Assembly: GCA_032158295.1 (NCBI GenBank)
Contig: CM063258.1
Location: 16,951,052-17,015,051 of the forward strand
Direction of reading: 5' to 3'
Length of the DNA stretch: 64,000 nucleotides
Origin: Pycnopodia helianthoides
Lineage: Eukaryota; Echinodermata; Asteroidea; Forcipulatida; Asteriidae
This document shows, piece by piece, positions 5,637 through 59,553 of the stretch. The position numbers and the translations under genes are program-made. The number at the start of each line of letters is the position of its first letter. Positions within the stretch are counted from its first letter, which is position 1. Under the pieces are notes generated by a model. It made no database searches, had not been told where the DNA came from, and worked only from the letters and a program-made list of their open reading frames with translations.

Positions 5637-5702
5637 ATGGCTTCATTTGGTGCGAAAGACCCACTGCTTCAGCCATTGCCACAGGATGCTTTTCCCCCAA
5701 AG
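5637..5702 (+). CDS. Weak candidate first exon (22 codons)
   Basis: A short ATG frame (MASFGAKDPLLQ...FPPK) with G at +4 ends in phase 0 at AAG|GTATCA. A TGA stop lies in frame at 5622-5624. Its proline-rich hydrophilic sequence and phase would fit an alternative N-terminus for the TRPC gene. It is short, the donor is only fair and I see no homology, so this is speculative. Confidence 0.2.
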
Positions 5703-5931
5703 GTATCAACGGTGAGTTGTGTTACAGATTTGATAAAGTATTGGTGATAGTAATTAAACATGGAATCGTGGATCTGTCCTCTACATGTTATGTTGTGCTC
5801 TTAATAATGTCAAATTATATAAATATACTAGAGACAACATAATTGTAATCAATGACTCGTTTGTTCAAAGACTTGTTGGACGTAATCCACTTGGTTTGTC
5901 ATGTGTGGTAAATGATTTTAAATTGGAAGTC

Positions 5932-27050: not shown

Positions 27051-27258
27051 AAGAAAGAAAAACCGGAAAGTCCGACAATGCAGCGACCCAACTTTTCTGA
27101 CCCTGCTTCGGTTGAGAGGCTTTTCATTCAAGCAGTAGAAAGAGGTGATCGTAAGGCCATTATCTTCGCCTTAGAGAATGCTCCCGATCTCAACATCAAT
27201 TGTACGGATCAGGATGACAGACCCGCTCTTCTCATCTCCATACAGAATGGCAATTCAG
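27051..27258 (+). CDS. TRPC: TRPC exon A: N-terminus and first ankyrin-like repeat
   Basis: Acceptor CTTGGCAG|AAG and donor TCAG|GTTTGA. It encodes KKEKPESPTMQRPNFSDP followed by VERLFIQAVERGDRK and LNINCTDQDDRPAL, matching the opening TRPC ankyrin pattern (FL.A...GD...V and NVNC.D..G..AL). The internal ATG at 27078 is a usable start if upstream sequence is UTR. It ends in phase 1. Confidence 0.9.
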
Positions 27259-30200
27259 GTTTGACAATAGCTATTTAATACCATAACCCTTAAACTGACA
27301 AATTTACTCAATTGAACACCCCTATATTTGCATGCTTAACTTAAAGTACGACAAAACTTGAATCATCTTAAATATCTTAAGGGATATTTCACAGAGTGCC
27401 ACATAACACATACAAATGAAACCATCGCAGTGTAAATAATGACACATTACCTTATGGCATGTTGCTTCAAACTGATTATTGAACCATGTCGAATACCAAC
27501 CACAAGTTTCTCTATGGGTAGGTTGACCTATTAAAGGCAACTTTTGATAACGGTCTAAGTGTACCTATACTGCTTTAAGAAATGAACTTTTCTTTACTTT
27601 TTCTTTGCTAACACTTATTTCAGATATCGTTCAGCTTCTATTGGATCACAACGTACAGTTGGGGGATTGTTTATTACGTGCAGTTGACGAGCAGTTCGTT
27701 CAGGGTGTTCGCCTAATCTGCGAACATATCAAAAAGAAGAATTTACCCGTATGTCATTCCTTTTCTTGTTAATTTGTTTAAACAAATCTTGTTATGGTTT
27801 AACCGCAATCTTTTAAATGTGTCTTCAAGTTAAGCTCGGTCAAAACTTCACTGTCCCTTTTACAGAAATTTATCATGACCCGGGGTGTAGTGAATTATTT
27901 TTAATTTGATGTCGTCCGCTGTAACGGATAGTAACTTTTTCATATAACAGAGCAGATGTATTTATTACTATTCATCATAATATGAACGAATTCAACTATA
28001 ACAGTTCAGTAACATTAGTTACATTGGTCGATAAGAAAACTTATTGCTGTATTTTGCTACGAATTTGAGAAATTTTGAAATTGTATATCATACTATACTG
28101 CAATATTGTTAAACATGCACGGAATTACACTTTTAATAATAAAGATACAGATCTTTAGGTTTTCGGGAAATCTATAAAAGAAGTTCTATTACAGTTTAAA
28201 CATCGCAGTAGTAACTTTTTTCGTCTCAGCTTTTATGAAATGTTGATGAGGATCAATTACAACTTAGTGTCGCAGCGTACACAGTCATTGACGTATGTAT
28301 AGGCAACAATCTGATCCAGAAGTCTAACGAGTTTAATCTTTTTTATAACATGTTTTTTACTTCCTTGGTTATTAGGAAGCTCTAAATTGCCGTGCCCTTA
28401 ACGGCGATTTTCACTTTGATGTTACACCCCTGGTCCTAGCAGCACAACACAATCATTTTGACATCATTCGAATTTTATTGGAGTATGGAGCGAGAATCAA
28501 AGATCCAAGAGAATACAGTGACGAAGCAGCGATGCACACATTGGAAAACTCCGTAGGGATGATAAATCTTTATAAGGTTTGTGACAAAAACATCCTTTTG
28601 CAATTTGCATTTAATAAATTTTGCTGAAAGATAACGTAAAATAGCCATGAAAGACTAGAATGATATCGTAAAATCATAAAGTCTTAAAAGCCACAGCTTC
28701 AAAAGAAGTTTTTGCAATCTGTAGTCCATTCTTCTGCCGTTTATTGTCAGAGAGATCATCACGTTTTTTGTTTTTGTAATTTGTAAATCACCATCTCAGG
28801 TCTTACTTATACGGAAACTTAAAAACAAATTTATTCCACAATTAAAAAAATTATATTTTACCACTCCCGTTTACAATTTTGAATGATGCATTTTGATATG
28901 TCGAATCAATATACTTACATGATATACAATTGCATTTTACACATTTATTTTGAAAAACATTTTTACACATTTGGAATAAATTTGTCTTTATCACACAAGG
29001 CACTTGCAAGTCAAGCCTACATCTCACAAACATCAAGCGATCCCTTCAGTACAACATTTGAACTTTGTTCTAAACTTCGTAAACTCGCTCTGACCAAGTA
29101 TGAATTCTGCGACCAGTTTCAAGAGTTAGCGAGACAGTGTGAGGACTTTGCAGCTGGTCTTCTAGACCAGGTGCGAGATTCCAATGAACAGGCTCTGATT
29201 CTCAACCATGATCCATACGGATGGAGTAATCCGTCCGAAGACCTTCAGACATGTCAGCCCAACAGAGTGAAAGCTGCAATATTTTTTGAACAGAGAAAGG
29301 TATGATATTACTGTTATAAACTCTTTCAAAATTTGTTTAAAGGAGTTAGTCAACGTGTACTTATTGGAATGTTTACCAAGTAGTTAATTGAACAGATGGT
29401 ACATAGTAACATGATATCTGTGGATGTTAATTACAACCTCTGTTATAATATTATATAAACACACAAACTGACTGAAGCAATTCGCAATGCATCTTTTATC
29501 TATTCCCACAGAAGAGACTTTAATGACACTTTTTACCAGATGTCATTTTCATCCGACATAACAAAATAAATAATAAAGAAAGAAAGAAAGAAATAATTAA
29601 AATGTTTGTTTCATACTTTACAAAATGATTTTGGGGTTCAAATTGTACTGCGACGTGGAACACCGTTGCCGAAATTTACAATGAACTCTACAGGTACCGT
29701 CGTTAAAAGATTAGGGGCCTATAGGTTTAATAAAAAATAAAAAAATAAATAAAAAAACCAATGCATCAAATCAAAGTCTATGCGCTGCTCTTACTAGATA
29801 CAACGACTTAATGACGTCACCACTGCGTCATTGTGACCTGTTTTATAAATGTATTTTTTATTTGTGGCGAGAGTTTGGGGCGCGTTTGTGGCGAGGACGA
29901 CTTGGTCGTGCGACTCCGTTTGAACACTTTTAGATGCCTTTGACGACGCTTGGGGTTAAAGGTAAAATGAAAACCTGAATATGGAAATAAGCCTATTTTG
30001 CACCATTTTTTAAAACAGAAATTTGATGAAGTGTTATGCACCTTTTGATGACGATATTTAAGATTTGTTGGTTCTCAGTGCGCCAATTTCGCTTCGCTGG
30101 CATTACCTCAAATGAAGAACACAATTTAAATAAATAATAATACACTTGTGATTAATTACAGTTTGTTGCTCATCCTCACTGCCAACAACGTCTAATCGAA

Positions 30201-33200
30201 CAGTGGTACCATGGTCTTCCTGGCTGGCGAGACCAAAGTTCATTCAAGTCTGGTTTGACCGTCTTGTTGATGGGTCTTAGTTTCCCGCTTCTCTCTATAG
30301 CTTACATTCTTTTCCCGTATGGCAAGCTTGGCAGGTTTCTACGCATCCCGTATGTCAAGTTTGTGTGTCACACTGCCTCCCAACTCTGCTTCCTTCTTCT
30401 CTTGTTGTACCAAACTATAGGTAAGTGGCAGGAAAAGATTCAAAACACTACAATGTTATGAAATTAGTTATTCTATTCTAGTAACAAAATCATTGTAACT
30501 AGCTAATTGTTACATAAGATTCAAAACACAAAATTCAAGAAAATTTTGTTTCAGTGTATCGTAGACCGTAAAAAAGAATGCAACAAGAGACCAAACTTAG
30601 AGACAGAAACACCGGGGTTTCCCCTACCCTTCCACTACGTACACGAGACCTAGGGCTTGTCCCATCCGAAGGACAAAGCAATTATGGTAAAGCATCTTGC
30701 TCACAAGTGCCACGACCGTGACTTGGCCCCACACTCTGCTGATCAGAAACATTGGAGCTTAAAGGAACACCTTGCCTTGGATCGGGCGAGTTGGTAAAAA
30801 AAGCGTTTGTTTTTGTAACCGTTTGTTATAAAATGCAATGAAAGTCGATACAATGACCCACACAAAATATGGCTCGAAATTGCGTGGTTTACTTTGCGAA
30901 CTAACACGGTCGGCCATTTTGTGGAGTCGAAAATTTGCCCGGTAAATGTTTTCATCCATCCTACAATCTAGCCTGTTTTAAGAGGAATATCAATACTTCA
31001 CTTCAGCTTTCATGGGGGTTTTCATATCACATTTTCTTCTCTGTAGCCCGTAACTAAGGATTGCTTTTACCTTGTTCGGGGCGAATCTGTAGTCTAAAAA
31101 GAGAATGTTAAAACAGAATGTACAGAATAAAAAGTATAAACCTTGGAGTGTAAGTATATGTTAATTGTCAAATTTATGTATTTATTTTACTTGTGTGTTT
31201 TATTTGAATCCTGTAGTTGAAAGCACATCTCACCCCTTGTCAGCATTAGCAGTGAGCAAAGCAGATGAAGAACGCACTTCAAGTGATTCAGTGTCAACTA
31301 CGACGGTCAAATCTAACCCACCTAGTATTATTATGCTGTTTATAGTGGCATGGGTTGCCGGTAATTAAAACATTTGATCGTTATCTTATTTAATTTTAAA
31401 AGAAAAATCAAAGTTAAATACTCATTCCTTAGTTGTGGTTAGAGTAATTTGTAATTTTTTTATTTGAAATACCAATTATCGAATCCATCCGATTCACAGT
31501 AATTTGTTCAGCAGGCTATTTCTTTTTCATACAGGGATGACGTGGTCCAAATGCAAGGAGCTTTGGTACAATGGCTCAAGATTCTTCAATAATCTCTGGA
31601 ACTATTTTGACTTCGTTACACTTGTGTTATACTGGACGGTCATAGCGCTTCTTTTCATGGTGTATTTTAAGGTACTGACTTGATAGTTTTTATGTGCTAT
31701 ATTTTTTCGAATTTATAATCATAGTAAGCGGACACAGTTTACTTTGGGAAAAGGATCATGCTTTATTATTTAAGATATTGTAATTCCTACTATGACATCA
31801 GAGCTTGTGTACACCATACCGAATTAATTGACTCACACACACCAACGGTGGGAAAATAGTTATACCTTTCGGAATTCACTAGAGTCTAAGCTTTTTAAAG
31901 ACTAATCACCGTTCAAAAGAGTAGCCATATCAATGAATTTGAAAATATTTTTTTTGATGACGACTTTTCCTTCTCGGTGGTTTTTAATGTAATGTAGTTT
32001 GGATTCAGGATGATTCAGGAGACGATCCTGAAATAGCGCTTTATATGAACAACAAAATATGATTACTCTTATTAAAATATTATTGTTTTTTATTTATTTT
32101 GTAAACCTATAGGCACAGCAAAGCGATCCAGCTCACTTAGTGGCTCGGTCACAGGAAGTTAATGTGACTTTAGGGCCGTCCTCTACGCTTGATCCATTCA
32201 CCCTTGAATCAAACGATGCTCCCGTCCAAGAAGGCTTAAAAGACATCGAAGAATCCCTAGATGTTATCTCAGGCAAGCTTGATCAGCTCATATCTGGACA
32301 GCAGATGATGACTTCTAATATGTCCCACGCGGTGTTAAAGGCAATGGCCAACAAGACCCGTCGAGGATTCAGACTGCCAGTAAGTTAAAAGTACTCTTGA
32401 AATGGGAAAAAGTTTCAAATATCACTTTTCTAAGAGATTTTGTGCCTTCAATATTAAGTAGTGAAATAAAATCACTTGTTCATTTCAGGAGGCAAAAGAA
32501 GGTGAAGATGGAGAGGAATACGAGCGTTTTACATGGCAGCCATATAACCCTATCCTAGTGGCAGAGGCATTGTTTGCCCTTGCGAAGGTCATGAGCTTTA
32601 TGAGAATGATCTGTCTGACCGTAGTTAACCGACATGTGGGACCTATGCAAATCTCCCTAGGTGGTATGATGATGGATATCGCCAAGTTTCTCTTCATATT
32701 CTGCTTTGTATGGTTTGCGTTCTCTCTAGGAATGAACCAGTTGTATTGGTACTATGCAAAGCATCTTAATCAACCCTTTGGAACGTAAGTCACTACTAAC
32801 TGTGTTTCCAGTTCAGTATTACGTAGACTCTAAGAAGTCCCGTTCAGACTATTGAAATGGTAGTGGGTCCGAGGGAATCGGTTTCGGCGAATCGGAATAA
32901 CCCTGAGTCTCTGCTAAAACATGTTGCTGACTCAAATTCCTGGTTAGTGTGTAAGTGGAGAGCAGGTTCCACTCCCAGTGAGAAGGGCCAAATCTCATAA
33001 AGCTGCTTAAGCATAAAAAGTAGCAAAGTAAAATAAAATTATGCTTACCAGAGTAAGATTACCAGCCAAATTACCATGTCACATGTACAATCTGTGACTG
33101 GAATCCTGCTTATTTTTGCTAAGCAGAAAGTTGTTAAGCAATATTTGCTGCTTAAGCAGCTCTATGAAATTGGCCCCTGGAAAGTGAGTCTGATCCAATG

Positions 33201-36200
33201 AAACCAGGCTCTAGGTCAAATCTGACCCGAGTCAATTTTGATCCGGGTCAGGTCTTAGTGACAACACTGTAACAATAGTACACAGAGGTACAGTCGGCAA
33301 ATGCACATATTTTATACACAGCTTTTACTTCCGTTATTAAACAAATTGATATAAATGGTTTTCGTTGTTTTCGTAATTAAGAATCACTTTTTGTCAAAGA
33401 TAATCTGCAGTGTTGTGCTATAAAGTGTCATTTCATTTTATTTTATGTCTGGTATCGTAAAATTTTATATCCGGAAACTGAAGCGTCTTACTTGTAACAA
33501 CTATATGCCTAGTCTTGATTGGCGACGTTCATTTTGTTTAACGTGGTGCGATATCGCAACACTAATAGGCCGATTGCCCTCTCCAAGTCACGTGACCTAT
33601 AGTGGGTATCTAACATCAACAAACAATGCGTCCACCATAGGAAAGTGTCGTTGTTGTAATGTACATGGTGATTGTTCCATTTATTTATTCGATCGAAGGT
33701 TTTCTTTCTCGAAATCTGTGAAGAATATTTCATTAAACCAGACCTCACCGGAGTGGCTGAATAAACCAGTAAGGACAGTTCCAGCAAGTTTCGGAAAATC
33801 TAAATATCCGCAAAGCACGTCTAATTTAAATGCTCACGATGTGCTCATCCGGGATCACACACTTTTGAACACAAGAGTGTCGCAATTTTGAAGCTGAAAT
33901 CATCCAAAAGGAAGAAAAGGCTTTCTAAAACTGTGATTTTTGTTTTGCTATTTGAAATTCCGCAAGGCTAAATATTAATTTCTAACTTTTATTAGGGCTT
34001 ACACTGATTTACACAACAAGCAAAATACCAGAGGGTGGATCGTCGTCCGACGCCGGTAGTGCATAACTCTAAATAAACCCCATTAATTTGTAATAGAATA
34101 CTCGTTATGTATGAAAAAGTCACTATGCTTTAAATCAACGTCACAACATACAACTTTAATAAAAGGGCTTAGTATAGTTGTGTTATTATTCACAAAAATA
34201 AAGCTGACTGTCGGCGTACTCGCTCTGCCACAACATAGTTTATTGCACGTCTGCCATCCGCTGAGATGACGTAGTACCCACTATAGGTCACGTGATGACA
34301 TGTAAACATTGGAAGCGCAATCGGTCTATTACTGTCCGCAACACGAATTACTGGAGAAGAGATATCTGTATCACACGAACATCGGTTGTTTCGATCCAGA
34401 TTTATAGACTTGCCCAGTCCTTCTGAGTCAGACTCCCAAACAGTCAATGTAGCGCCCTCTACAGGTGGCTAATACAAAAAACAGCGTCGCCAATCAAGAC
34501 TACTATGCCTACGTTTGGTTTATGTGCATTTCCATCCGTCTGAAGGTATTTGTTTCTTATGTTTTTTTTGCAGGCTTATGGAGACAATGGCAACCCTATT
34601 CTGGGCGTTATTTGGACTGCCAGATATCTCAATTGTCAATTTACCAGGAATTAACCACTTGTTCACTCAGGCAGTCGGTCAATTATTGTATGCTGTGTAC
34701 CACATCATAGCAATAGTAGTACTCCTGAATGTACTTATTGCTATGATGAGTAATACCTACACTCGCGTTGAGGTTTGTATCAACAAGTAAACATTTGTTT
34801 TGTAAATAAGTTGCAGTTTCGGGGCTGCTTTGAGGAATCATGACTCGCCGTGTCGTGGCCGAGCGGAAAACACTGGACACAAGCTCTTGTGTTTCTGACT
34901 AGCAGAGTGTGTGTGCTCGAATTCCGATCTTGATACTTGTGTCCTTGAGCAAGACACTTAACCATCATTGTTCCGTCCCTCGGATGGGTCGTAACCGTTG
35001 GTCCCGTGTGTTGCGTAGGGTAATGTACGCAAAGAACTTAGTTAAACTCATCGTTTAAGAGGAGTTCGCCCAGGGTTTCCTGGTATGGGTTTTCAATTTA
35101 TTTTTTGGTTATGCAAACTCGCCCCAAAAGGCTTAGGGCAACCATGAGTGAGGGAATGGCTCGTTGATCTACATCTCAGCAAAGCCATGGTTTCAAGCTC
35201 AAACATTCTGATAGGAGGAACCAGGTCGGGCAAACAGGTGGCACATTTACCATGAAAATATATAAAGAAAAGACAGAGGCTGGCTACAGACCTACGATGG
35301 GAAAGAGGTTGAAATGTTGATCCCAACCCTTCATCAACAGTATTTACAATACGCTTCTGCTTTTTTTTTTTTAAAAATAAAGATAAAAATTGACAGGCAG
35401 ACGCTCGGGCCCAAATGTGAGAATATTACTCCAATAGGGGTCGTATAGTTGTCTTACACAGGTAGAGAGTAGCATCAGGAGGTAAGAACTTCTGAGCTCG
35501 ATAGAGACAACCAACTCGCATGGAAGCACTTTTTGCAATGCCTGAGATATACATCTCCCAATTGGTATCTGCGGAGATGTCAAGTCCAAGAAGGCGAAAA
35601 TATAATACCGCAGGCAAAATCGCTGGACCCCCTTGTATATAAAACCGTTATATGGTGCTATGTAAACAAAAGGGTCTAAATTATTTCAAACATAGCTGCG
35701 CATACCTTTTAGAAAAAAGGTGTTGAGTGCTTTTAAACGCCCCGCCAGATGTGATCAAGCCGTTTATAAAAACTGCGTATTTCGTGAATGATAACCTTTT
35801 ATATCACATTAGCTCTAACAACGTCAGAGAGAAGAAAAATATAACTTGTATTATGTACCCAAATGGTAATGTTTCGCTATAAATACTGCTTTTGAAAAAA
35901 TGATTGTGTTGGATCGTAACGTATCCTTCATTCTAGGTCACTGCTTCGCTTTCCTTTAAAATCAATGCCCTAATTTACTATTATTGGTTACAGATGGATG
36001 CCGATATGGAGTGGAAATTTTCTCGCTCTAAGTTGTGGATGAGTTACTTTGATGAACTTGGGACGGTACCTCCTCCTCTAAACACCCTACCAACCCCCAA
36101 GACAGTGTACTACTTCGTCAGGTGGCTCTTCTGTGACGTGTGCTGCCGAGAAAATCTCGCCAAGAAATACAAGGTACAACATTGGATAATGGTCAGAGTG

Positions 36201-39200
36201 GGGTTTTGTATAAAACAGTATTTACACTATCAATTACAAATAAATGTAAAAAATTGTCGAAAATTAATTTTAAAATAATGTTTATCTGTTTAAAAATAAT
36301 TAACCGTGCCCACTTTAAAGTATAATTTGAAGATATAAGACGTTATTCATCCATACATTATTTGTGTATCCAGTATGACATTGCGTTTTTTTCATTTTGT
36401 GAACAGGAGAGGTTGCGGAGTATTGTTGATGAAAGACAAATGAAATTTCGGGTAAGTGGCTATAGCAACTGTAAGTTAAATAATGCTTTTACTAAGATAA
36501 GTCCCCAATTTACGGGGTTGACAAATAAGTGTGTATGTGTCATGTTTAATCCTCCGATGCAGTCGCAATTACCGTGAGCATTAGCACAGTACGGTCGCGG
36601 TTACAAACTTCATTGTATGTGAATATAACTACTGCAGAATATGTTTCGTACCATTCTTCAAGGTGATAATCATTTCAAAGGTTTATAGAATGCTTTAAAC
36701 AATAAACAATTCTTTTTGACTCTCCAATTATTAAAACACACCATGATTTAGCATGATTGATCACAACATATTTTTTACCCTACAATGAGCTGTCTGTTGC
36801 ACACAAACAAGGCCGGCTTCAGTCAAAGTGTCCTAGCCCCACCCACACACATCAATTGGGGTTTATTTATTGGTCAATACAACCGACACTGTCAAGTAAT
36901 GTCATAAAGGCAAGTATCACATGCAATGCCAAGGCCAGTCGCAACCAATCTCGCGTGCAAGCATATTGGCTGTTTTGTCACCAATATATGTGCTTGACCT
37001 TACCTGACCTGACTTATCCTTTTCCAGACCTGAGTATACTGAGTATACTGCATCTGATCTGACTGACCTGACCTGACCTGACCTGACCTGACCTGACTTA
37101 ACCTGAGTATACTCCAGACCTGAGTATCCTAAGTATACTTCATCTGACCTGACTTGACCTGACCAATCCTGTAGACCTGAGAGTACTGAGTACACTGCAT
37201 CTGAAATGACCTGACCTGACATGTTCTGACCTATCTTGAGTATACTGCAGACCTGGGTATCCTGAATATACCGGATGTGACCTGACCTGACCTATCCTGA
37301 CCTATCCTGCAGACCCGAGTATCCTGAGTATACTTCATCTGACCTGACTTGACCTGACCAATCCTGTAGACCTGAGAGTACTGAGTACACTGCATCTGAA
37401 ATGACCTGACCTGACATGTTCTGACCTATCTTGAGTATACTGCAGACCTGGGTATCCTGAATATACCGGATGTGACCTGACCTGACCTGACCTGACCTAT
37501 CCTGCAGACCCGAGTATCCTGAGTATACTGCATCGGATCTGACCTGACCTTACCTGACCTGACCTGACCTATCATGCATACCTGAGTATCCTGAGTATAC
37601 TGAATCTGACCTAACCTGACCCATCCTGAGGAAACTGCTGACCGGAGTATGCTGATTAAACTGCACCTGACTTGGACTTGGACCCGACTTGACCTGACCC
37701 GACCTGACCTGACCTGACATGACCCGACCCGATCTGACCCAACCTGACCCGACCTGACCTGACCTATCCTAAGTATACTGCAGACCTGAGTATCCTGAGT
37801 GTACTTGTTACTCCTGGTTTGACGTTGGTTCGTCACACACGTTAGTTGGGACTGATGATAAAACAAATCACTCGGCAACAATTCCTGAAGTATTTATCCC
37901 TGACCCAACTCTTAACCACAGCCCAAGATAGCAGTCGCTCTTTCCCAACTTTAAACCAATCAACTCCCTGAGGCTTGTCTGGTTACAGTGCCATATACAA
38001 CTGGGTCATGCAACACTAGCAAAACCCTTAGGACATGGAGTTAATGGGACTAACAGACTTTACGGTGCCACACTGAGTATATGCATTGTTTAATGCTGGT
38101 CTAATGTACTGGGCTATAATAAAAAGGACTTATTAACTTATATAATAGAAAACTAAACTTACTTTTGCTCCTCGAAATACATGTAGTTAGAAAAGTAAAC
38201 AAGTATCAATCCTAGCATCAGGACATTCTATAAAGTCTTGACTTTAAGAAATACAAAATTTATTAATCAAAGCATTACGGAGAAAACTAGTTGTTCCTTG
38301 ACTAAAAACCCATCATTGTTAAGGAAAAGTAACAAATAACGAGTGACTATGATGCTTAAAACTACACCAGGATGATCAAAGATTTAAAAAGGCAAATAAA
38401 TCATCTCATAGCAAAGCAAAAGTTCCAGAATGGTATCTATAGGTAATCTATATTTTATTAATTAACTATTGTATAAATTCAAATAAATTCCACATACCTG
38501 AAAATGAAAGAAACAGATAAACAATAGTGAGTTGGTTGCTGTTGAGTTGTTCACGAATAACTTGTATTTCGGTCATATATCAGAATTACTTGAAGATTAC
38601 AAGCACTGCCAACAATAGTGACAACAATAATGACTTTCATTTCATGAAAACATATAAAAATGGCACTTTTGAAAAGCGGTATATTTTGACAAATGTGACT
38701 TTGTTGTCATGTGATCATTTAAATGATCATCAGATCGTCGATTGTGCATAATAAAAAGACCATGGATAAAATGATGTTATTCCTACATAATATTTTACAA
38801 GTCTAAATATTTATGTGTACTAACCACCAAATTTCAAATTAATTTATCTAGCGGGACGCCCCGCTAGTTTTTACAATTAGATCTTCCTAATCATTATATA
38901 ATAATGTGATTTCTTTTTGAACAAAACGTGTTGTGTTTATTCGTTGACTGAGAGAAACAAGTTAAACTTCACTTCTTTTGTATTATATTACATTACACAG
39001 GAAGTATCAGAACAGGTTGTGAGACGTTACCACTTTGAGAAGCGCCACCAAGAAGAAGAAGATGACCAGGCAAACCTGTTGAATGAGCTCAAGCAGGATA
39101 TCTCTGGGTTTAAGTATGACATGTTCGAAGCCCTCTCTGAGATGGACAAAAAAATAAGAGAGGTAGATGCTAAGGTAAACAACAAGGACCTAGAGGAGGA

Positions 39201-39507
39201 AGGAGGCTTGGGAACAGGAATGTTTAAGGCTCTACAAGACGCCATGAAAGAACCAGAAAGAAGAGACAGTATGATATCAATGTCTTCTGGATGCTCTGTT
39301 GCTATGGTTGATATGAGATCTGCCAGGAATGATAACCAAACTCCCGAATGGATGGAGAATGATGACGACATAGAAATGACACCACTTGTTAATAGTACCA
39401 CAGCAAATAAAGAAGCTGAACAACCACGCAATGGTCAAGCTGCTGACCCACTAAAGTTTATTGACGATGATGATGCATTGGGTGCACATAGAAATACTGA
39501 AGTGTAA
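27051..39507 (+). CDS. TRPC: TRPC-family cation channel gene (13 exons, 5' end uncertain)
   Basis: Predicted receptor-operated, non-selective, calcium-permeable plasma membrane channel of the TRPC (canonical TRP) family. Exons: 27051-27258, 27624-27748, 28376-28576, 29000-29299, 30162-30420, 31217-31360, 31535-31671, 32113-32379, 32489-32784, 34574-34772, 35994-36173, 36407-36451, 39001-39507. All introns are GT-AG. From ATG 27078 (A at -3) the phases close exactly to 946 residues plus stop. Domain order (approximate residues from that Met): ankyrin-like repeats 1-170, TRPC linker 170-269, pre-S1 FVAHPHCQQ from 270, S1 333-355, S2 392-407, S3 425-448, S4 558-583, S5 598-623, LFWALFGL pore motif ~645, S6 673-698, TRP box EWKFSRSKLWMSYF from ~709, C-terminal helix and acidic tail ending NTEV. 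It mixes TRPC4/5-like features (PGWR, KF-CHTAS) with a short pore turret as in TRPC3/6/7, so I do not assign a subtype. The first exon opens in phase 0 after a splice acceptor, so more 5' coding sequence is likely. Confidence 0.95.
27624..27748 (+). CDS. TRPC: TRPC exon B: ankyrin-like repeat 2
   Basis: The acceptor ATTTCAG joins the phase-1 G to give DIVQLLLDHNVQLGDCLLRAV, the TRPC pattern 'VTELLL...GDALLLAI'. The exon continues to HIKKKNLP and ends in phase 0 at CCC|GTATGT. Confidence 0.9.
28376..28576 (+). CDS. TRPC: TRPC exon C: ankyrin-like repeats 3-4
   Basis: A 67-codon exon, phase 0 at both ends. It contains DVTPLVLAAQHNHFDIIRIL followed by GARIKDP, equivalent to the TRPC 'DVTPIILAA...IV..LL..GARI..P' segment. 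The Cys/His-rich insert seen here in many TRPCs is replaced by a short acidic stretch. Confidence 0.92.
29000..29299 (+). CDS. TRPC: TRPC exon D: linker helix domain
   Basis: A 100-codon exon, phase 0 at both ends. Diagnostic TRPC text: ALASQAYISQTSSDPFSTTF followed by LRKLA, then QCEDFAAGLLDQ. This helical linker lies between the ankyrin repeats and the membrane domain in known TRPC structures. Confidence 0.95.
30162..30420 (+). CDS. TRPC: TRPC exon E: pre-S1 and S1
   Basis: Begins with FVAHPHCQQRLIEQWYHGLP, the signature of the TRPC pre-S1 region. A hydrophobic pre-S1 elbow (LLMGLSFPLLSIAYILF) and S1 (KFVCHTASQLCFLLLLLY) follow. It ends in phase 1 at a consensus GTAAGT donor. Confidence 0.95.
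30600..30758 (-). repeat. tRNA-derived SINE fragment (same family as 34849)
   Basis: On the minus strand it reads GTTTCTGATCAGCAGAGTGT, then TTGTGAGCAAGATGCTTTAC and TTCGGATGGGACAAG, in the same order as the + strand copy at 34870-35010. It lies in the intron between exons E and F. Confidence 0.7.
30763..30955. mobile_element. One-ended TTAA/AGG element fragment
   Basis: TTAA|AGGAACACCTTGCCTTGG at 30759 looks like another TTAA-type terminus, abutting the SINE. I see no matching right end, so the right limit is approximate. Confidence 0.4.
31217..31360 (+). CDS. TRPC: TRPC exon F: S1-S2 loop and start of S2
   Basis: Phase 1 at both ends. The S1-S2 extracellular loop is about 38 residues, rich in Ser/Thr/Ala (ERTSSDSVSTTTVKS), then NPPSIIMLFIVAWVAG opens S2, matching the PPTI...W segment of TRPC4/5. 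Confidence 0.9.
31535..31671 (+). CDS. TRPC: TRPC exon G: S2-S3 linker and S3
   Basis: Reads GMTWSKCKELWYNGSRFFNN, then WNYFDFVTLVLYWTVIALLF. The WN..DF motif at the start of S3 is typical of TRP channels. The exon ends in phase 0 (AAG|GTACTG). Confidence 0.93.
32113..32379 (+). CDS. TRPC: TRPC exon H: 89-residue S3-S4 loop insert, frame-neutral
   Basis: Encodes the bulk of a long loop between S3 and S4, which is extracellular in TRPC structures. It carries three N-X-S/T sequons (NVT, NMS, NKT) and a heptad-like amphipathic stretch (GLKDIEESLDVISGKLDQLI). In vertebrate TRPC4 this loop is only about 15-20 residues. Length 267 and phase 0 at both ends mean it can be included or skipped without breaking the frame. 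Splice sites are CCTATAG| and |GTAAGT. Confidence 0.88.
32489..32784 (+). CDS. TRPC: TRPC exon I: S4 and S5
   Basis: After a short acidic lead (EAKEGEDGEEYERF) it reads WQPYNPILVAEALFALAK, then HVGPMQISLGGMMMDIAKFL and GMNQLYWYYA. These match the TRPC S4, S4-S5 linker and S5 (LVAEALFA, GPLQISLGRM, LNQLYFYY). It ends in phase 2 with a GTAAGT donor. Confidence 0.95.
32985..33176. mobile_element. Foldback MITE, GGGCCCAATTTCAT family, copy 4
   Basis: Degenerate ends GGGCCAAATCTCATAAAGCT and AGCTCTATGAAATTGGCCCC with internal GCTTACCAG and TGCTAAGCAG blocks. It lies in the intron after exon I. Confidence 0.85.
33511..34500. mobile_element. 990-bp foldback/TIR DNA transposon
   Basis: AGTCTTGATTGGCGACG at 33511-33527 is exactly complementary to 34484-34500. 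A second inverted block, CACGTGACCTATAGTGGGTA, pairs 33590-33610 with 34275-34295, and GGCCGATTGC-like blocks flank it. Non-autonomous: the frames inside (e.g. 33445-33891) show no transposase. It sits in the intron between the S5 and pore exons. Confidence 0.8.
34574..34772 (+). CDS. TRPC: TRPC exon J: pore helix, selectivity filter, S6
   Basis: Completes a Thr codon, then METMATLFWALFGL gives the conserved LFW pore motif. S6 is YAVYHIIAIVVLLNVLIAMM. The turret between S5 and the pore helix is only about a dozen residues and lacks the paired cysteines found there in TRPC4/5. It ends in phase 0. Confidence 0.95.
34849..35090 (+). repeat. tRNA-Ser/Leu-like derived SINE
   Basis: The head GTCGTGGCCGAGCGG resembles the A-box arm of tRNA-Ser/Leu; GCTCGAATTCCGATC is a B-box-like segment. 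The body has CCTTGAGCAAGACACTTAAC and CCTCGGATGGGTCGTAA. A second copy lies at 30600-30758 on the other strand. Confidence 0.75.
35093..35617 (-). pseudogene. Non-LTR retrotransposon reverse-transcriptase C-terminal fragment
   Basis: Minus-strand frames read LLGLDISADTNWEMYISGIA, then LYLCKTTIRPLLE (35426-35617) and, after a frameshift, STFQPLSHRRSVASLCLF and YFHGKCATCLPDLVPP (35093-35326). These match the region after the RT domain in Jockey/RTE-like LINEs (LG..IS.D..W...I, LYK..VRP.LEY, L.HRR.V..LSLFY..YHG). Frameshifted and truncated, in the TRPC intron before exon K. Confidence 0.65.
35994..36173 (+). CDS. TRPC: TRPC exon K: TRP box and proline motif
   Basis: Sixty codons, phase 0 at both ends. 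Starts MDADMEWKFSRSKLWMSYFD, the TRP domain following S6 (EWKFAR.KLWMSYF in the family), then TVPPPLNTLPTPK, equivalent to the conserved proline-rich LP.PFN motif. A CDVCC cysteine cluster follows. Confidence 0.95.
36407..36451 (+). CDS. TRPC: TRPC micro-exon L (15 codons)
   Basis: A 45-base exon (ERLRSIVDERQMKFR) between TTTTGTGAACAG and GTAAGT, phase 0 at both ends and therefore skippable in frame. It lies in the cytosolic helix region between the TRP box and the C-terminal coiled region. Confidence 0.7.
36995..37805. repeat. CCTGA-based minisatellite with 195-bp higher-order copy
   Basis: Pentamer CCTGA runs alternate with GAGTATACTGCAGACCTGAG-type spacers. A segment beginning TCTGACCTGACTTGACCTGA at 37143 recurs at 37338, an offset of 195. 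It fills much of the 2.5-kb intron before the last TRPC exon. Confidence 0.92.
37806..39000. other. Remainder of last TRPC intron
   Basis: AT-rich; no exon or repeat recognised before the acceptor at 39000. Confidence 0.5.
39001..39507 (+). CDS. TRPC: TRPC exon M: C-terminal helix, acidic tail, PDZ ligand
   Basis: Acceptor ATTACACAG. It opens EVSEQVVRRYHFEK, the counterpart of the TRPC V..LV.RY helix that precedes the calmodulin/IP3-receptor-binding region, then NELKQDISGFKYDMFEAL, matching ELKQDISSFR in TRPC4/5. A Ser/acidic tail (DDDIEMTP, FIDDDDALG) ends NTEV-stop, fitting X-S/T-X-V class I PDZ ligands. Stop is TAA at 39505. Confidence 0.93.
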   Translation, partial: EVSEQVVRRYHFEKRHQEEEDDQANLLNELKQDISGFKYDMFEALSEMDKKIREVDAKVNNKDLEEEGGLGTGMFKALQDAMKEPERRDSMISMSSGCSVAMVDMRSARNDNQTPEWMENDDDIEMTPLVNSTTANKEAEQPRNGQAADPLKFIDDDDALGAHRNTEV

Positions 39508-46402: not shown

Positions 46403-47100
46403 CCTGACTGACTGACTTGACTGCCCAATGACTTCATGACCTGACTGACTGACTGACCTGATAGACTGACCTGACCGATTGGCTGACCTTTTTGACTGAC
46501 TGACTTGACTGATTGACCTTTTTGACTGACTGACCCGAGTGACTGACCTGGCTGCCCTGACTGACCTGACTGACCTGACTGACCTGACTGACCTAACTGA
46601 CCTGACTGACTGACCTGACTGACTGACCTGACTGACTGACCTGACAGACTGACCTGACAGACTGACCTGGCAGACTGACCTGACTTGACTGAAATAACAG
46701 ACTGACCTAATAAACCAGACTTACCTGAGTGACTGACTGACCTGACAGGCTGACCTGACTGACTGACATGACAGACTTACCTGAGTGACTGACCTGACTG
46801 ACTGACCTGACTGACTGACCTGACAGACTGACTTGACAGACTGACCTGACTGACCGACATGACAGACTTACCTGAGTGACTGACCTGACAGACTGACTTG
46901 ACAGACTGACCTGACTGACTGACCTGACTGACTGACCTGACTGACTGACCTGACTGACTGACCTGACTGACTGACCTGACAGACTGACCTGACTGACCGA
47001 CATGACAGACTTACCTGAGTGACTGACCTGACAGACTTACCTGACAGACTGACCTGGCAGACTGACCTGACTTGACTGACATAATAGACTGACCTAATAA
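46403..47100. repeat. CTGA/CCTGA minisatellite
   Basis: Units of CTGA and CCTGA combine into 9-mers (TGACCTGAC) and 13-mers (CTGACTGACCTGA). A distinctive block GGCAGACTGACCTGACTTGA at 46669 recurs at 47056, an offset of 387, suggesting a larger duplication. Confidence 0.93.
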
Positions 47101-49200: not shown

Positions 49201-49876
49201 CTCCTACATGGTAAGACTTATTTCTTAGCCAAACATTTTTTTATTTCTGAATAAATTTGTATTACATGATATTGCCTAGAAAGAGTGCTAACAAATTATG
49301 GGGTAAGCTATTAACTAAGGCTACTATGTAGGCAGGGCTAGATTATCAACAAGACAAAGTAGGCACTGTACTGAGGTGGGGACTTTAATAAAATGAAGCC
49401 TCATACTACAGAGAATGTACACAAATCCACACACACAAACCTGGACATCTTAACATCTTCCCATAGACTTTGTACACAACATTTCTTGTGGAGCATCCCA
49501 GTCTTAAGGATGCCCTCGTGGATACTTTTTATTTTTCCTGTTTTGTTTTTTCTTTTGTCTTCACTAAGTACCAAATATGAGCACAACAGGTATTAATGTG
49601 TTTGCATATCCTTTTAAACACCGCAGAGCCAGATGTGGTCAAAAAAGCATTCCACTTCGTGACCACCGAGTCCTTATGGCACCTAACTATTTCCTCTCTT
49701 GTTTACCATGGAGGCTCACTGGCACACGCACCAACAGTAATTTCTCAAAGTGTAAATTGTGCCCTCAATCTCATGCAGGCCCCGCGTGCGCGCTACATCA
49801 CCCCGGCAACTTCCCCTCGTCCCCTCCTTGGCAATTGCAGCAAGCATCCACGCATTCTTCAGTCCTAGATTCTGAC

Positions 49877-50490
49877 ATGGTCGATGAAAATGCTAAAATT
49901 TTGGACAAAATCTTTGCCGATAGTGGTTCCGACATGTCCTCTGACAATGATTCACCACATGATGTGTTGGAAGAAGACAGTGATGATGAGCCCATCGCCT
50001 CCACATCGACAGCTTCCTGTTCATCCCAGACCAAGAAGCCGAATTTCAGGTGTGGATGGCGTGAAGCAAATACACCCGGCGACCGCCTGTGCAATTTACA
50101 GCAAACACCGGGGCTACAGAAGACTTCAGTTCGTTCTCCCCCATACAAATCTTCAAACTGTACTTTTGTGAAGCAGTGTGGCAGATGATGGTAGATGAGA
50201 CAAATCGTTATGCTGATCAAACTTTGGGTGCGGGTGCAGAAAATCAGCGTGCTTGGAGACCAACTAATGTACCTGAAATGATGGCATTCGTGGCCCTACT
50301 TCTTTGCATGGGAATCAACAAAAGGCCTTGTTACCCCATGCATTGGTCCAGGTCTGAAATTCTATGAAGTCCCCTGTACTCAGCAACCATGGCTCATAAC
50401 CGATTTACTGCAATCCATTGATTTTTCCACCTCGCCAACAACAGAGATGTGGAGGACGACTCTACCTGTGGCAAACTTTCAAAAGAGGAT
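49877..50490 (+). pseudogene. piggyBac-type transposase fragment (broken)
   Basis: A Ser/Asp-rich N-terminal frame (MVDENAKILDKIFADSGSD..., to ~50050) is followed, after a frameshift, by FTANTGATEDFSSFSPIQIF, then VDETNRYADQ and FVALLLCMGINKRP. The same frame continues past a TGA (50365) into LYSATMAHNRFTAIH and FFHLANNRDVED, interrupted by a second TGA. This follows the piggyBac order FTG..G, SPL..F.LFF, IV.ETNRYA, F.G.L..MG, YS..M..NRF..I..FLHF.dN. The catalytic DDD region is absent; it is truncated at a G-rich repeat. Confidence 0.85.
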
Positions 50491-57896: not shown

Positions 57897-57959
57897 TAAC
57901 TCTGGTTCTTGGCCGCCCCATTGTTTGTAAACTAATAACTTTGATTGGCTATAATTTTC

Positions 57960-59553
57960 CCTCCTTTTTCTGGATACCATCCCATTGTTCTTGAGATCCT
58001 AGCAGTACCCATCACACAAATTATCAATGCGTCCCTTTCAAATGGCGAGTTTCCCAAATCCTTCAAACATGCCTTAGTTATCCCACTCATCAAGAGGGCT
58101 TCCCTGGACTGCACAGACTTCGAGAACTACCGGCCTGTATCCAACGTATCATTCCTGTCAAAAGTTGTTGAGAAGGTGGTTGCAAACCGGCTTAACACGC
58201 ACCTACTCAGCAATAATCTACTTGAAACCACGCAATCAGTATACCGAAAGCATCACAGTGTCGAGACAGCACTCCTCAAAGTTCACAATGATATCATGCT
58301 AGCAGTTGACAACAAGAAAGTAGTTCTTCCTATTCTCCTAGATCTGTCAGCTGCTTTTGATACGATTGACCATGAAGAACTTCTGCACAAACTCCATGAC
58401 GACTTCGGTGTTAGAGGAGTTGCCCTAAGATGGTTCCAGTCATATCTGCATGATCGACTCAAGCTGTTATCATTAAAGGGTCATCATCAGATACTAAGGA
58501 TCTCAATTTCGGGGTTCCCCAGGGATCAGTTCTTGGCCCTCTGCTCTTCACACTTTACACCACTTCCATAAGTTGAATTGCTCAACATCATGGTCTTGAA
58601 GTTCACATCTATGCTGATGATACGCAGATACACACATCATGTAATCCAAACTCCCCCGGCAGTGAAGTAGAAGCAGTCAATCAGCTGACATCATGCATAA
58701 ACAAAATCAAATCTTGGATGTCAGCAAATTTGTTGAAGCTAAACGACAACAAGACAGAATTCATAGTTATTTGTTCTCCTCGTCTTAGAAGCAGACTCAA
58801 CACACATTCAATACAGATTGGTGATGCCCTCATTGCTCCCTCCCAAGGTGCGAGGAACCTGGGCGTTTTCTTCGACCAGAACTTGAACATGGACAAGCAC
58901 GTTTCAAATATATGTCAGTCATCTTTCTATCATCTCCGGAACATTGCAGCAATCAGAGGTGCACTTACCAGCCGAACAGCCGAGTGTCTTGTCCATTCCC
59001 TCATATCATCACGATTGGATTTCTGCAATAGTTTGTTATCGGGACTGCCACAACACATCATACACAAGCTACAATTAGTTCAGAATGCAGCTGCTCGCCT
59101 AATCACTGGAACTAAGAAATATGACCGCATTACACCAATACTTCATCAACTTCACTGGCTGCCCGTACAATTCAGAATTCAGTTTAAGATTATCCTACTC
59201 ACTTTTAAGGCACTTCATCAACTCGCTCCAATCTACAGCCGGGACATGATACACCTGCGTAGTATCAGGCCTGGTTTACGGTCCTCGGCTCTCTTACTTC
59301 ACGTACCTATATCCTGCCTCGCTAGCTATGGAGATAGAGCGTTCTCTAACATTGCACCTCGTCTGTGGAATGCATTACCGCTTGACCTAAGAACACAGCA
59401 TAATCTTGCAATCTTCAAACGACAGCTCAAGACTCATCTCTTCAAACGAGCATTTTAAATCCTGGACTTTGTCTTTGTGAACCGGTGCCCTTGAATGGCA
59501 GTTTTTGTCAGATACTGTGCGCTTTATAAGTGCTGTTTATTATTATTATTATT
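57960..59553 (+). mobile_element. L2/CR1-type LINE, 5'-truncated
   Basis: Reverse transcriptase from mid-domain: ENYRPVSNVSFLSKVVEKVV, HHSVETALLKVHNDI, LLDLSAAFDTIDHEELLHKL. A frameshift near 58480-58515 separates GVPQGSVLGPLLFTLYTTSI, then a TGA at 58574, then YADDTQIH (58610) which stays open to 59458 with LNDNKTEFIV, LGVFFDQNL, LVQNAAARLITGTKK, LHWLPVQFRI and PRLWNALPLDLR. The 3' end is GCGCTTTATAAGTGCTG plus a TTATT-type microsatellite at 59537-59553. The endonuclease and ORF1 are missing. Only one frameshift and one stop suggest a fairly recent insertion. Confidence 0.95.

What the first reader, a model, noticed from the sequence alone, without database searches (positions are those of the whole stretch)
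32113..32379. Frame-neutral exon adds a large glycosylatable extracellular loop to a TRPC channel
Exon H is 267 bases, phase 0 at both ends, and encodes most of a ~108-residue S3-S4 loop. In vertebrate TRPC4 this loop is ~15-20 residues. It has three N-glycosylation sequons and an amphipathic helix-like stretch. Skipping it would give a conventional short-loop channel, so one gene could make two channel forms differing outside the cell, a possible ligand or partner site. The exon and phases are read directly; the topology is from known TRPC structures; the splicing switch is inference.
Basis: partly seen in the sequence, partly recalled or inferred. Interest (0 to 1): 0.75.

Follow-up and report, generated by a model that had tools for sequence, protein, structure and literature searches.

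The report
Ancient long outer loop in starfish TRPC
A starfish calcium-channel gene has an exon for most of a large loop outside the cell; the loop is shared by a whole family of channels in echinoderms and acorn worms, and we found no sign that the exon is switched on and off.

Summary
The exon is real: 32113-32379, 267 nt, AG/GT borders, phase 0 at both ends, three sequons. The gene is a starfish TRPC channel, 93% identical to Asterias amurensis. The splice-switch reading is not supported. Of 69 ambulacrarian TRPC rows (isoforms and partial models dropped), 57 have S3-S4 linkers of 80 aa or more, 5 of 40-79 and 7 under 40; 18 chosen vertebrate and protostome rows have 8-19, a rotifer left out has 49. 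In trees built without the loop, 66 ambulacrarian rows form one clade (SH-aLRT 100); human TRPC3, linker 35 aa, falls outside. Five Apostichopus isoforms keep the loop; a search with the exon-skipped protein listed no loop-less orthologue (120 of 358 hits). The usual plan is a low-confidence, glycosylatable stalk, a long helix, often heptad-patterned, and a tail that is often dibasic. My reading: a constitutive exon for an ancient extracellular assembly or docking module. The tail site resembles a proprotein-convertase site, furin-type in 16 of 27 hemichordate loops, weaker here. Contacts and cleavage are untested inference. Seven literature searches listed nothing on this loop.

The parts
32113..32379 (+). 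Exon H: 89 codons of the 104-aa S3-S4 extracellular loop, phase 0/0
   Evidence: AG/GT borders, open frame, aligned by orthologues
32146..32169 (+). Stalk motif RSQEVNVT (R-[SAG]-Q-x(2,3)-N-x-[ST]) with the first sequon
   Evidence: 8 of 11 group-A loops, shuffles mean 0.03 max 2, 0 of 76 other rows; the motif was chosen after reading the rows
32224..32289 (+). Heptad segment VQEGLKDIEESLDVISGKLDQL (a = Leu, d = Val/Ile/Leu)
   Evidence: best a/d register z 3.1 over residue shuffles in the window; mean z 2.04 over 57 long loops
32236..32364 (+). Predicted long extracellular helix (window equivalent of P0001 residues 525-567)
   Evidence: AlphaFold2 model of the A. amurensis orthologue, mean pLDDT 87-89 at 531-550, 78 at 551-560
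32317..32325 (+). Sequon NMS
   Evidence: sequence
32350..32358 (+). Sequon NKT, overlapping the basic site
   Evidence: sequence
32353..32364 (+). Dibasic site KTRR at the end of the predicted helix, in a low-confidence stretch (P0001 563-570 under pLDDT 50)
   Evidence: [KR]R 40..9 residues before S4 in 38 of 57 long loops, shuffles mean 7.8 max 17
31535..31671 (+). Exon G: end of S2 to S3
   Evidence: alignment to TRPC4 and TRP-gamma of PDB
32489..32784 (+). Exon I: last 15 aa of the loop, S4, S4-S5 linker, S5
   Evidence: alignment to TRPC4 and TRP-gamma of PDB
5637..5711 (+). Exon 1 (MASFGAKDPLLQ..., 25 codons), by homology to P0001
   Evidence: tblastn 67% over 24 aa, E 2.5e-4; donor GTGAGT follows
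27051..27258 (+). Exon A (ankyrin repeats)
27624..27748 (+). Exon B (ankyrin repeats)
28376..28576 (+). Exon C (ankyrin repeats)
29000..29299 (+). Exon D (TRP_2 region)
30162..30420 (+). Exon E (pre-S1, S1)
31217..31360 (+). Exon F (S1-S2 loop, S2 start)
34574..34772 (+). Exon J (pore, S6)
35994..36173 (+). Exon K (after S6, TRP helix region, EWKFSR)
36407..36451 (+). Exon K2, 45 nt, ERLRSIVDERQMKFR
   Evidence: tblastn of P0001 and P0002, 16 aa 94%; AG/GT borders
39001..39507 (+). Exon L (C-terminal helix and tail, stop)

Best explanation
The exon is an ordinary, most likely constitutive exon of a starfish TRPC gene. It encodes most of an ancient extracellular module that sits in the S3-S4 linker of a large ambulacrarian TRPC clade. 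Shown by sequence and models: the loop is shared through most of the clade, and its plan is largely kept while its letters change fast (a low-confidence stalk with sequons, one long helix often with a heptad pattern, a low-confidence tail that is often dibasic, then S4). Inferred: the helix is an outside contact surface that pairs with the same helix of neighbouring subunits or with another surface protein, holding partners near the S3-S4 sensor-like domain and so setting assembly or gating. Also inferred, and less sure: a proprotein convertase may cut the basic tail on the way to the surface, leaving the helix as the free end of an S1-S3 chain and S4-S6 as a second chain.
For: Clade: 57 of 69 ambulacrarian rows have linkers of 80 aa or more (84-178), and 66 of the 69 form one clade (SH-aLRT 100) in trees built without the loop. 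Constitutive: no loop-less orthologue listed. Plan: heptad score mean z 2.04 over 57 long loops, positive in 54, 2 or more in 26; AlphaFold2 helix flanked by low-confidence stretches in two paralogues, P0001 525-567 and P0016 494-549; group A has Leu at a (23 Leu to 7 Ile/Val) and Ile/Val at d (23 to 3 Leu). Sequons in 56 of 57 long loops; for 49 of these, 48 against a shuffle mean of 36.2, max 45. Basic site: [KR]R 9-40 residues before S4 in 38 of 57 against max 17 in shuffles, and furin-type R-x-[KR]-R in 17 of 57 against max 4, 16 of them among 27 hemichordate loops, read as RVKR|SP, RSRR|AV, RHRR|AV and the like. Length is kept (96-107 aa in group A) while exon-H identity falls to 11 of 79 with a crinoid.
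Against: No RNA, protein or function data for this species. The basic site is absent near S4 in 19 of 57 long loops, including the ophiuroid and crinoid orthologues (P0012-P0014) and all eight long-loop rows of the third echinoderm group. The window's KTRR is not a furin R-x-[KR]-R. The heptad pattern is weak in that third group (z -0.0 to 1.7) and weaker in hemichordates (mean 1.60) than in groups A (2.28) and B (3.77). The Leu-a/Ile-d pattern holds in group A but not in group B (12 Leu to 17 Ile/Val at a) or hemichordates (28 to 25), and the rows are related, so the Fisher value is not a true probability; the shuffle tests share that weakness. Only two proteins were modelled, as single chains; no tetramer could be modelled. 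Fast divergence also fits a loose spacer.
Confidence: 0.5

Rival explanations
1. One reading: a regulated cassette exon; one gene makes a long-loop and a conventional short-loop channel.
For: Frame-neutral exon leaving a 15-aa linker; the upstream donor of exon G is weak by a crude count (6 of 9 consensus positions), as are those of exons A, B, J and K; Saccoglossus paralogue models P0057/P0058 differ by a 62- against an 11-aa linker.
Against: No short-loop orthologue among the listed hits of three searches; five annotated Apostichopus isoforms all keep the loop; separate genes with 18-aa linkers already supply conventional TRPCs in starfish (P0089, P0091, P0099); exon H has a good donor (7 of 9).
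Confidence: 0.07
2. The loop is an unstructured spacer that grew by drift, with sequons and basic residues of no use.
For: Fast letter change (34 of 87 with Acanthaster); low pLDDT for the stalk and tail; the basic site and the heptads are missing or weak in part of the long loops.
Against: Length held at 96-107 aa in group A; heptads, sequons and the basic site exceed shuffles; the motif R-[SAG]-Q-x(2,3)-N-x-[ST] is kept in 8 of 11 group-A loops (chosen after reading the rows).
Confidence: 0.22
3. Two-chain channel: the basic tail is cut by a proprotein convertase, and cutting changes gating, as furin does for ENaC (recalled).
For: R-x-[KR]-R in 17 of 57 loops and [KR]R in 38 of 57, 9-40 residues before S4, 17-22 before S4 in 8 of 11 group-A loops; the site lies in a low-confidence stretch at or after the helix end; the window's K-T-R-R fits the general convertase motif (K/R)-(X)n-(K/R), n = 0, 2, 4 or 6, quoted in PMC8037623 (passages).
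Against: 19 of 57 loops lack the dibasic; the window site is not furin-optimal and may carry a sugar at N of NKT; no cleavage data.
Confidence: 0.22
4. The loop is the TRPC3/6/7 extracellular domain, inherited from a common ancestor.
For: TRPC3 also has a long S3 and long S3-S4 linker forming an extracellular domain proposed as a sensor (PMC5967863, passages).
Against: TRPC3's linker is 35 aa by the same delimitation, and TRPC3 groups outside the ambulacrarian clade, with the short-loop rows (its branch is long); the window protein scores higher to TRP-gamma and TRPC4/5 than to TRPC3/6 in PDB.
Confidence: 0.08

Closest known systems
TRPC4/TRPC5 and insect TRP-gamma
   Same: Ankyrin repeats, TRP_2, six-helix ion channel, EWKF-type TRP region; best sequence matches in PDB and best structural matches of the orthologue model (TRPC1/C4, TRPC5, TRPC4)
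   Different: S3-S4 linkers of 8-19 aa in the 18 vertebrate and protostome rows (rotifer P0092, left out there: 49); here 104 aa
TRPC3/TRPC6 extracellular domain
   Same: Extended S3-S4 region outside the membrane; glycosylation noted in the extracellular region (PMC5967863, passages)
   Different: TRPC3's linker is 35 aa, holds no dibasic and scores 2.0 for heptads against 5.5 in the window; separate in the tree
ENaC furin processing; TRPML1 proteolytic cleavage
   Same: Channels reported as cut by proteases (ENaC recalled; TRPML1 from a reference title seen in PMC5676595)
   Different: Other channel families; cleavage here is only predicted
Four-stranded coiled coils of the GCN4-pLI type (Leu at a, Ile at d; rule recalled, Harbury 1993 seen only as a reference)
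   Same: Group-A heptads have that a/d distribution
   Different: Only about three heptads; pattern not kept in group B or hemichordates

Membership tests
TRPC channel | N-terminal ankyrin repeats and TRP_2 (PF08344) | tested here: met
   Pfam PF12796 E 8e-14, PF08344 E 1.4e-12
TRPC channel | Six-helix ion channel domain with LFW pore motif | tested here: met
   PF00520 E 8.3e-18; TLFWALFG aligned to PDB chains
TRPC channel | TRP box after S6 (EWKFAR type) | tested here: met
   EWKFSRSKLW aligned to EWKFARSKLW/EWKFARTKLW; one or two letters differ
TRPC3/6/7 subgroup | Groups with TRPC3 in a tree | tested here: not met
   66-row ambulacrarian clade at SH-aLRT 100 with TRPC3 outside (one TRPC3 fragment, long branch, 315 columns, quick method)
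Ambulacrarian long-loop TRPC clade (defined here) | Falls in the clade and has a linker of 80 aa or more | tested here: met
   104 aa
Proprotein-convertase substrate | Basic motif in an exposed luminal or extracellular segment | tested here: met
   KTRR fits (K/R)-(X)n-(K/R); low pLDDT in the orthologue. The furin R-x-[KR]-R form is not met in the window
Proprotein-convertase substrate | Actual cleavage | not testable with these tools
   needs protein
Parallel tetrameric coiled coil | Heptad repeat with Leu at a and Ile at d | tested here: inconclusive
   met in group A, not in group B or hemichordates
Alternatively spliced cassette exon | Transcripts with and without the exon | tested here: inconclusive
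   no skipped form among the listed proteins; no RNA of the species at hand

The most novel reading that the evidence does not exclude
Ambulacrarian TRPCs carry an extracellular, convertase-processed four-helix cap: one heptad helix per subunit joins in a tetramer above the pore. Cutting at the basic tail turns each subunit into two chains and frees S4-S6 from the cap, so maturation or extracellular proteolysis sets gating. No such extracellular assembly domain is known to me in TRPC channels.
Probability: 0.1. Interest if true: 0.8.

Novelty: new variant of a known kind. Interest (0 to 1): 0.42.

Why it matters
In the vertebrate and protostome TRPC rows sampled here the S3-S4 linker is mostly 8-19 residues long. 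A whole animal branch has turned it into a module of up to 178 residues with its own plan and kept it across many paralogues, while conventional short-linker TRPCs survive beside it. That gives a natural experiment on what an outside domain next to S4 does to a TRPC, and a clean test of whether extracellular proteolysis can control one. It also moves the finding from a guess about splicing to a lineage-wide protein feature.

Tried and rejected
Splice switch: no loop-less orthologue among listed hits. Common origin with the TRPC3 extracellular domain: not favoured. Glycosaminoglycan attachment in the window's gene: the acidic-cluster-then-Ser-Gly pattern is frequent in group B and some hemichordates ([DE]{2}.{0,10}SG in 18 of 49 loops, shuffles mean 7.6, max 16). 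Among the 11 group-A loops it fits the window, P0001 and P0013; in the window the Ser-Gly lies inside the predicted helix and is not at that place in Acanthaster or S. purpuratus, so I did not pursue it. Tetramer rule as proof: rejected, because group B and hemichordates do not follow it. Pfam on exon H alone: no family. Crude splice-site counts do not single out exon H.

Rows behind the counts. One search used 87 of the rows fetched. Of ambulacrarian rows I dropped the Apostichopus isoforms P0008-P0011, the partial or duplicate models P0024, P0058, P0132 and P0133, and P0064 (channel domain duplicated in the model). Of other rows I kept 18 and left out the rest, most of them vertebrate; left out too were the rotifer P0092, whose linker is 49 aa and ends in a basic run, and the mollusc model P0080 (152-aa linker with an insertion that reads like a mis-model). 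P0150-P0205 were tallied only: 54 at 9 aa, one at 16, one at 18. Four 'lgn' rows without an organism name (P0004, P0006, P0021, P0145) count as ambulacrarian by their place in the tree. Searches used 49 long loops, before the third echinoderm group was found; searches used 57.

Literature: searches listed no paper on long S3-S4 loops in ambulacrarian TRPCs, judged by title and start of abstract (one search listed 10 of 13 papers, 15 of 40; the other five listed every paper found). PMC13143021 was also searched for terms, and none of the passages shown deals with TRPC loops. The library lacks most subscription papers. Not possible: exon structure of relatives (no eukaryote genome collection; own-genome search did not complete), dN/dS, oligomer modelling.

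Full report

THE EXON. 32113-32379 is 267 nt with AG/GT borders and phase 0 at both ends. It supplies 89 of the 104 residues between S3 and S4, and 15 remain without it. Three sequons lie in it. Between the window and Acanthaster it keeps 34 of 87 residues, while the rest of the protein keeps 746 of 839.

IS IT A SWITCH? I looked for loop-less forms in three protein searches, the last with the exon-skipped protein itself (358 hits of 890 candidates, 120 listed). No listed orthologue entry lacks the loop. Five annotated isoforms of Apostichopus differ only at the N-terminus. The clustering at 90% identity may hide members, and no RNA of this species was available, so rare skipping cannot be excluded. 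One Saccoglossus paralogue has two gene models with a 62- and an 11-residue linker and 639 of 642 aligned residues identical; one of the models looks faulty elsewhere.

HOW WIDE IS THE LOOP? In one search the 41 ambulacrarian proteins of the first search had linkers of 84-178 residues and the 4 protostome ones 15-18. After two more searches, 69 ambulacrarian rows (isoforms and partial models dropped) gave 57 of 80 or more, 5 of 40-79 and 7 under 40, while 18 chosen other rows gave 8-19. A rotifer left out of that set has 49 (P0092), so moderate lengthening is not unique to Ambulacraria. A tree without the loop columns puts 66 of the 69 in one clade (SH-aLRT 100). The three left out are ordinary short-linker starfish TRPCs (P0089, P0091, P0099), which sit with vertebrate TRPC4/5 at support 89. 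With human TRPC3 added on 315 columns, the 66 stay one clade (SH-aLRT 100) and TRPC3, with a 35-residue linker, falls outside on a long branch. So the loop most likely arose, or was enlarged, before echinoderms and hemichordates parted, and was lost or shortened a few times; the unrooted count cannot prove the direction. These trees used the quick method without bootstrap, and vertebrate TRPC1, TRPC6 and amphioxus were not sampled.

THE PLAN OF THE LOOP. (1) Stalk: low-confidence in both models (P0001 491-523, P0016 452-491), with sequons in 56 of 57 long loops taken whole (for 49 of them 48 against a shuffle mean of 36.2, max 45). In group A a motif R-[SAG]-Q-x(2,3)-N-x-[ST] is kept in 8 of 11 loops (shuffles mean 0.03, max 2) and in none of 76 other rows; I chose it after reading the rows. 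(2) Helix: P0001 525-567 with mean pLDDT 87-89 at 531-550, and P0016 494-549 with 70-88. A heptad hydrophobic pattern exceeds residue shuffles: mean z 2.04 over 57 loops, above zero in 54, 2 or more in 26; by group 2.28 in A, 3.77 in B, 1.60 in hemichordates and -0.0 to 1.7 in the third echinoderm group (2.29 over the first 49 loops). In group A, Leu prefers a and Ile/Val prefer d, the pattern recalled for four-stranded coils, but group B and hemichordates do not share it. (3) Tail: [KR]R 9-40 residues before S4 in 38 of 57 long loops (shuffles mean 7.8, max 17) and R-x-[KR]-R in 17 of 57 (mean 0.5, max 4), 16 of them hemichordate (16 of 27). It is missing in 19, including the crinoid and brittle-star orthologues and all eight long-loop rows of the third echinoderm group. 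The window has KTRR at the end of the predicted helix. All shuffle tests ignore kinship, so they overstate the strength.

MECHANISM. Best reading: a constitutive exon encoding an extracellular assembly or docking module; the helix makes outside contacts, the stalk gives reach and sugar cover, and the tail may be cut by convertases. The anatomy rests on sequence and on two single-chain models; contact, oligomer state, cleavage and effect on gating are inference. I put the anatomy and clade part near 0.9, helix contact near 0.4, and cleavage near 0.2-0.25. TRPC3's extracellular domain, proposed as a sensor of external stimuli (PMC5967863, passages), is the nearest functional parallel.

VERDICT. 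What remains is a lineage-wide enlargement of a TRPC linker into a patterned extracellular module. Seven literature searches of an open-licence library listed nothing on it (listings only, some capped).

Noticed in passing
P0016, P0021, P0022, P0028 and other group-B and hemichordate loops: Loops of the paralogue group carry an acidic cluster followed by Ser-Gly (DDEDDFTPSGE, DDEDFTMASSGD, DDSDYISIDFSSGDE), reminiscent of glycosaminoglycan attachment sites (recalled); [DE]{2}.{0,10}SG in 18 of 49 loops, shuffle max 16.
   Followed up: partly
window 32755-32784 and 34574-34620: The pore turret (KHLNQPFGT) lacks the Cys pair seen in the TRPC4 chains (ETKGLSCKGIRCEKQ), so a turret disulphide is missing.
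   Followed up: no
P0135, P0140-P0143, P0145, P0148, P0149: A third echinoderm TRPC group has 87-108-aa linkers with a Cys after Leu-Thr/Leu-Ser in several rows, weak heptads and no dibasic near S4.
   Followed up: partly
P0092 (Adineta vaga), linker: A rotifer TRPC row has a 49-aa S3-S4 linker ending in VRRRD, outside the ambulacrarian set.
   Followed up: no
window 37074-37765: Minisatellite array of TGACC-type units in the intron before the last exon.
   Followed up: no
window 46403-47095: 13-bp tandem repeat CCTGACTGACTGA, about 53 copies.
   Followed up: no
window 57945-59458: Reverse-transcriptase-like open frames (FENYRPVSNVSFLSKVVEKVVANRL..., YADDTQI...), by eye a non-LTR retrotransposon remnant (name recalled, not tested).
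   Followed up: no
window 49568-50295: Open frame with an acidic stretch (SGSDMSSDNDSPHDVLEEDSDDEP) that by eye resembles the start of a piggyBac-type transposase (recalled, not tested).
   Followed up: no
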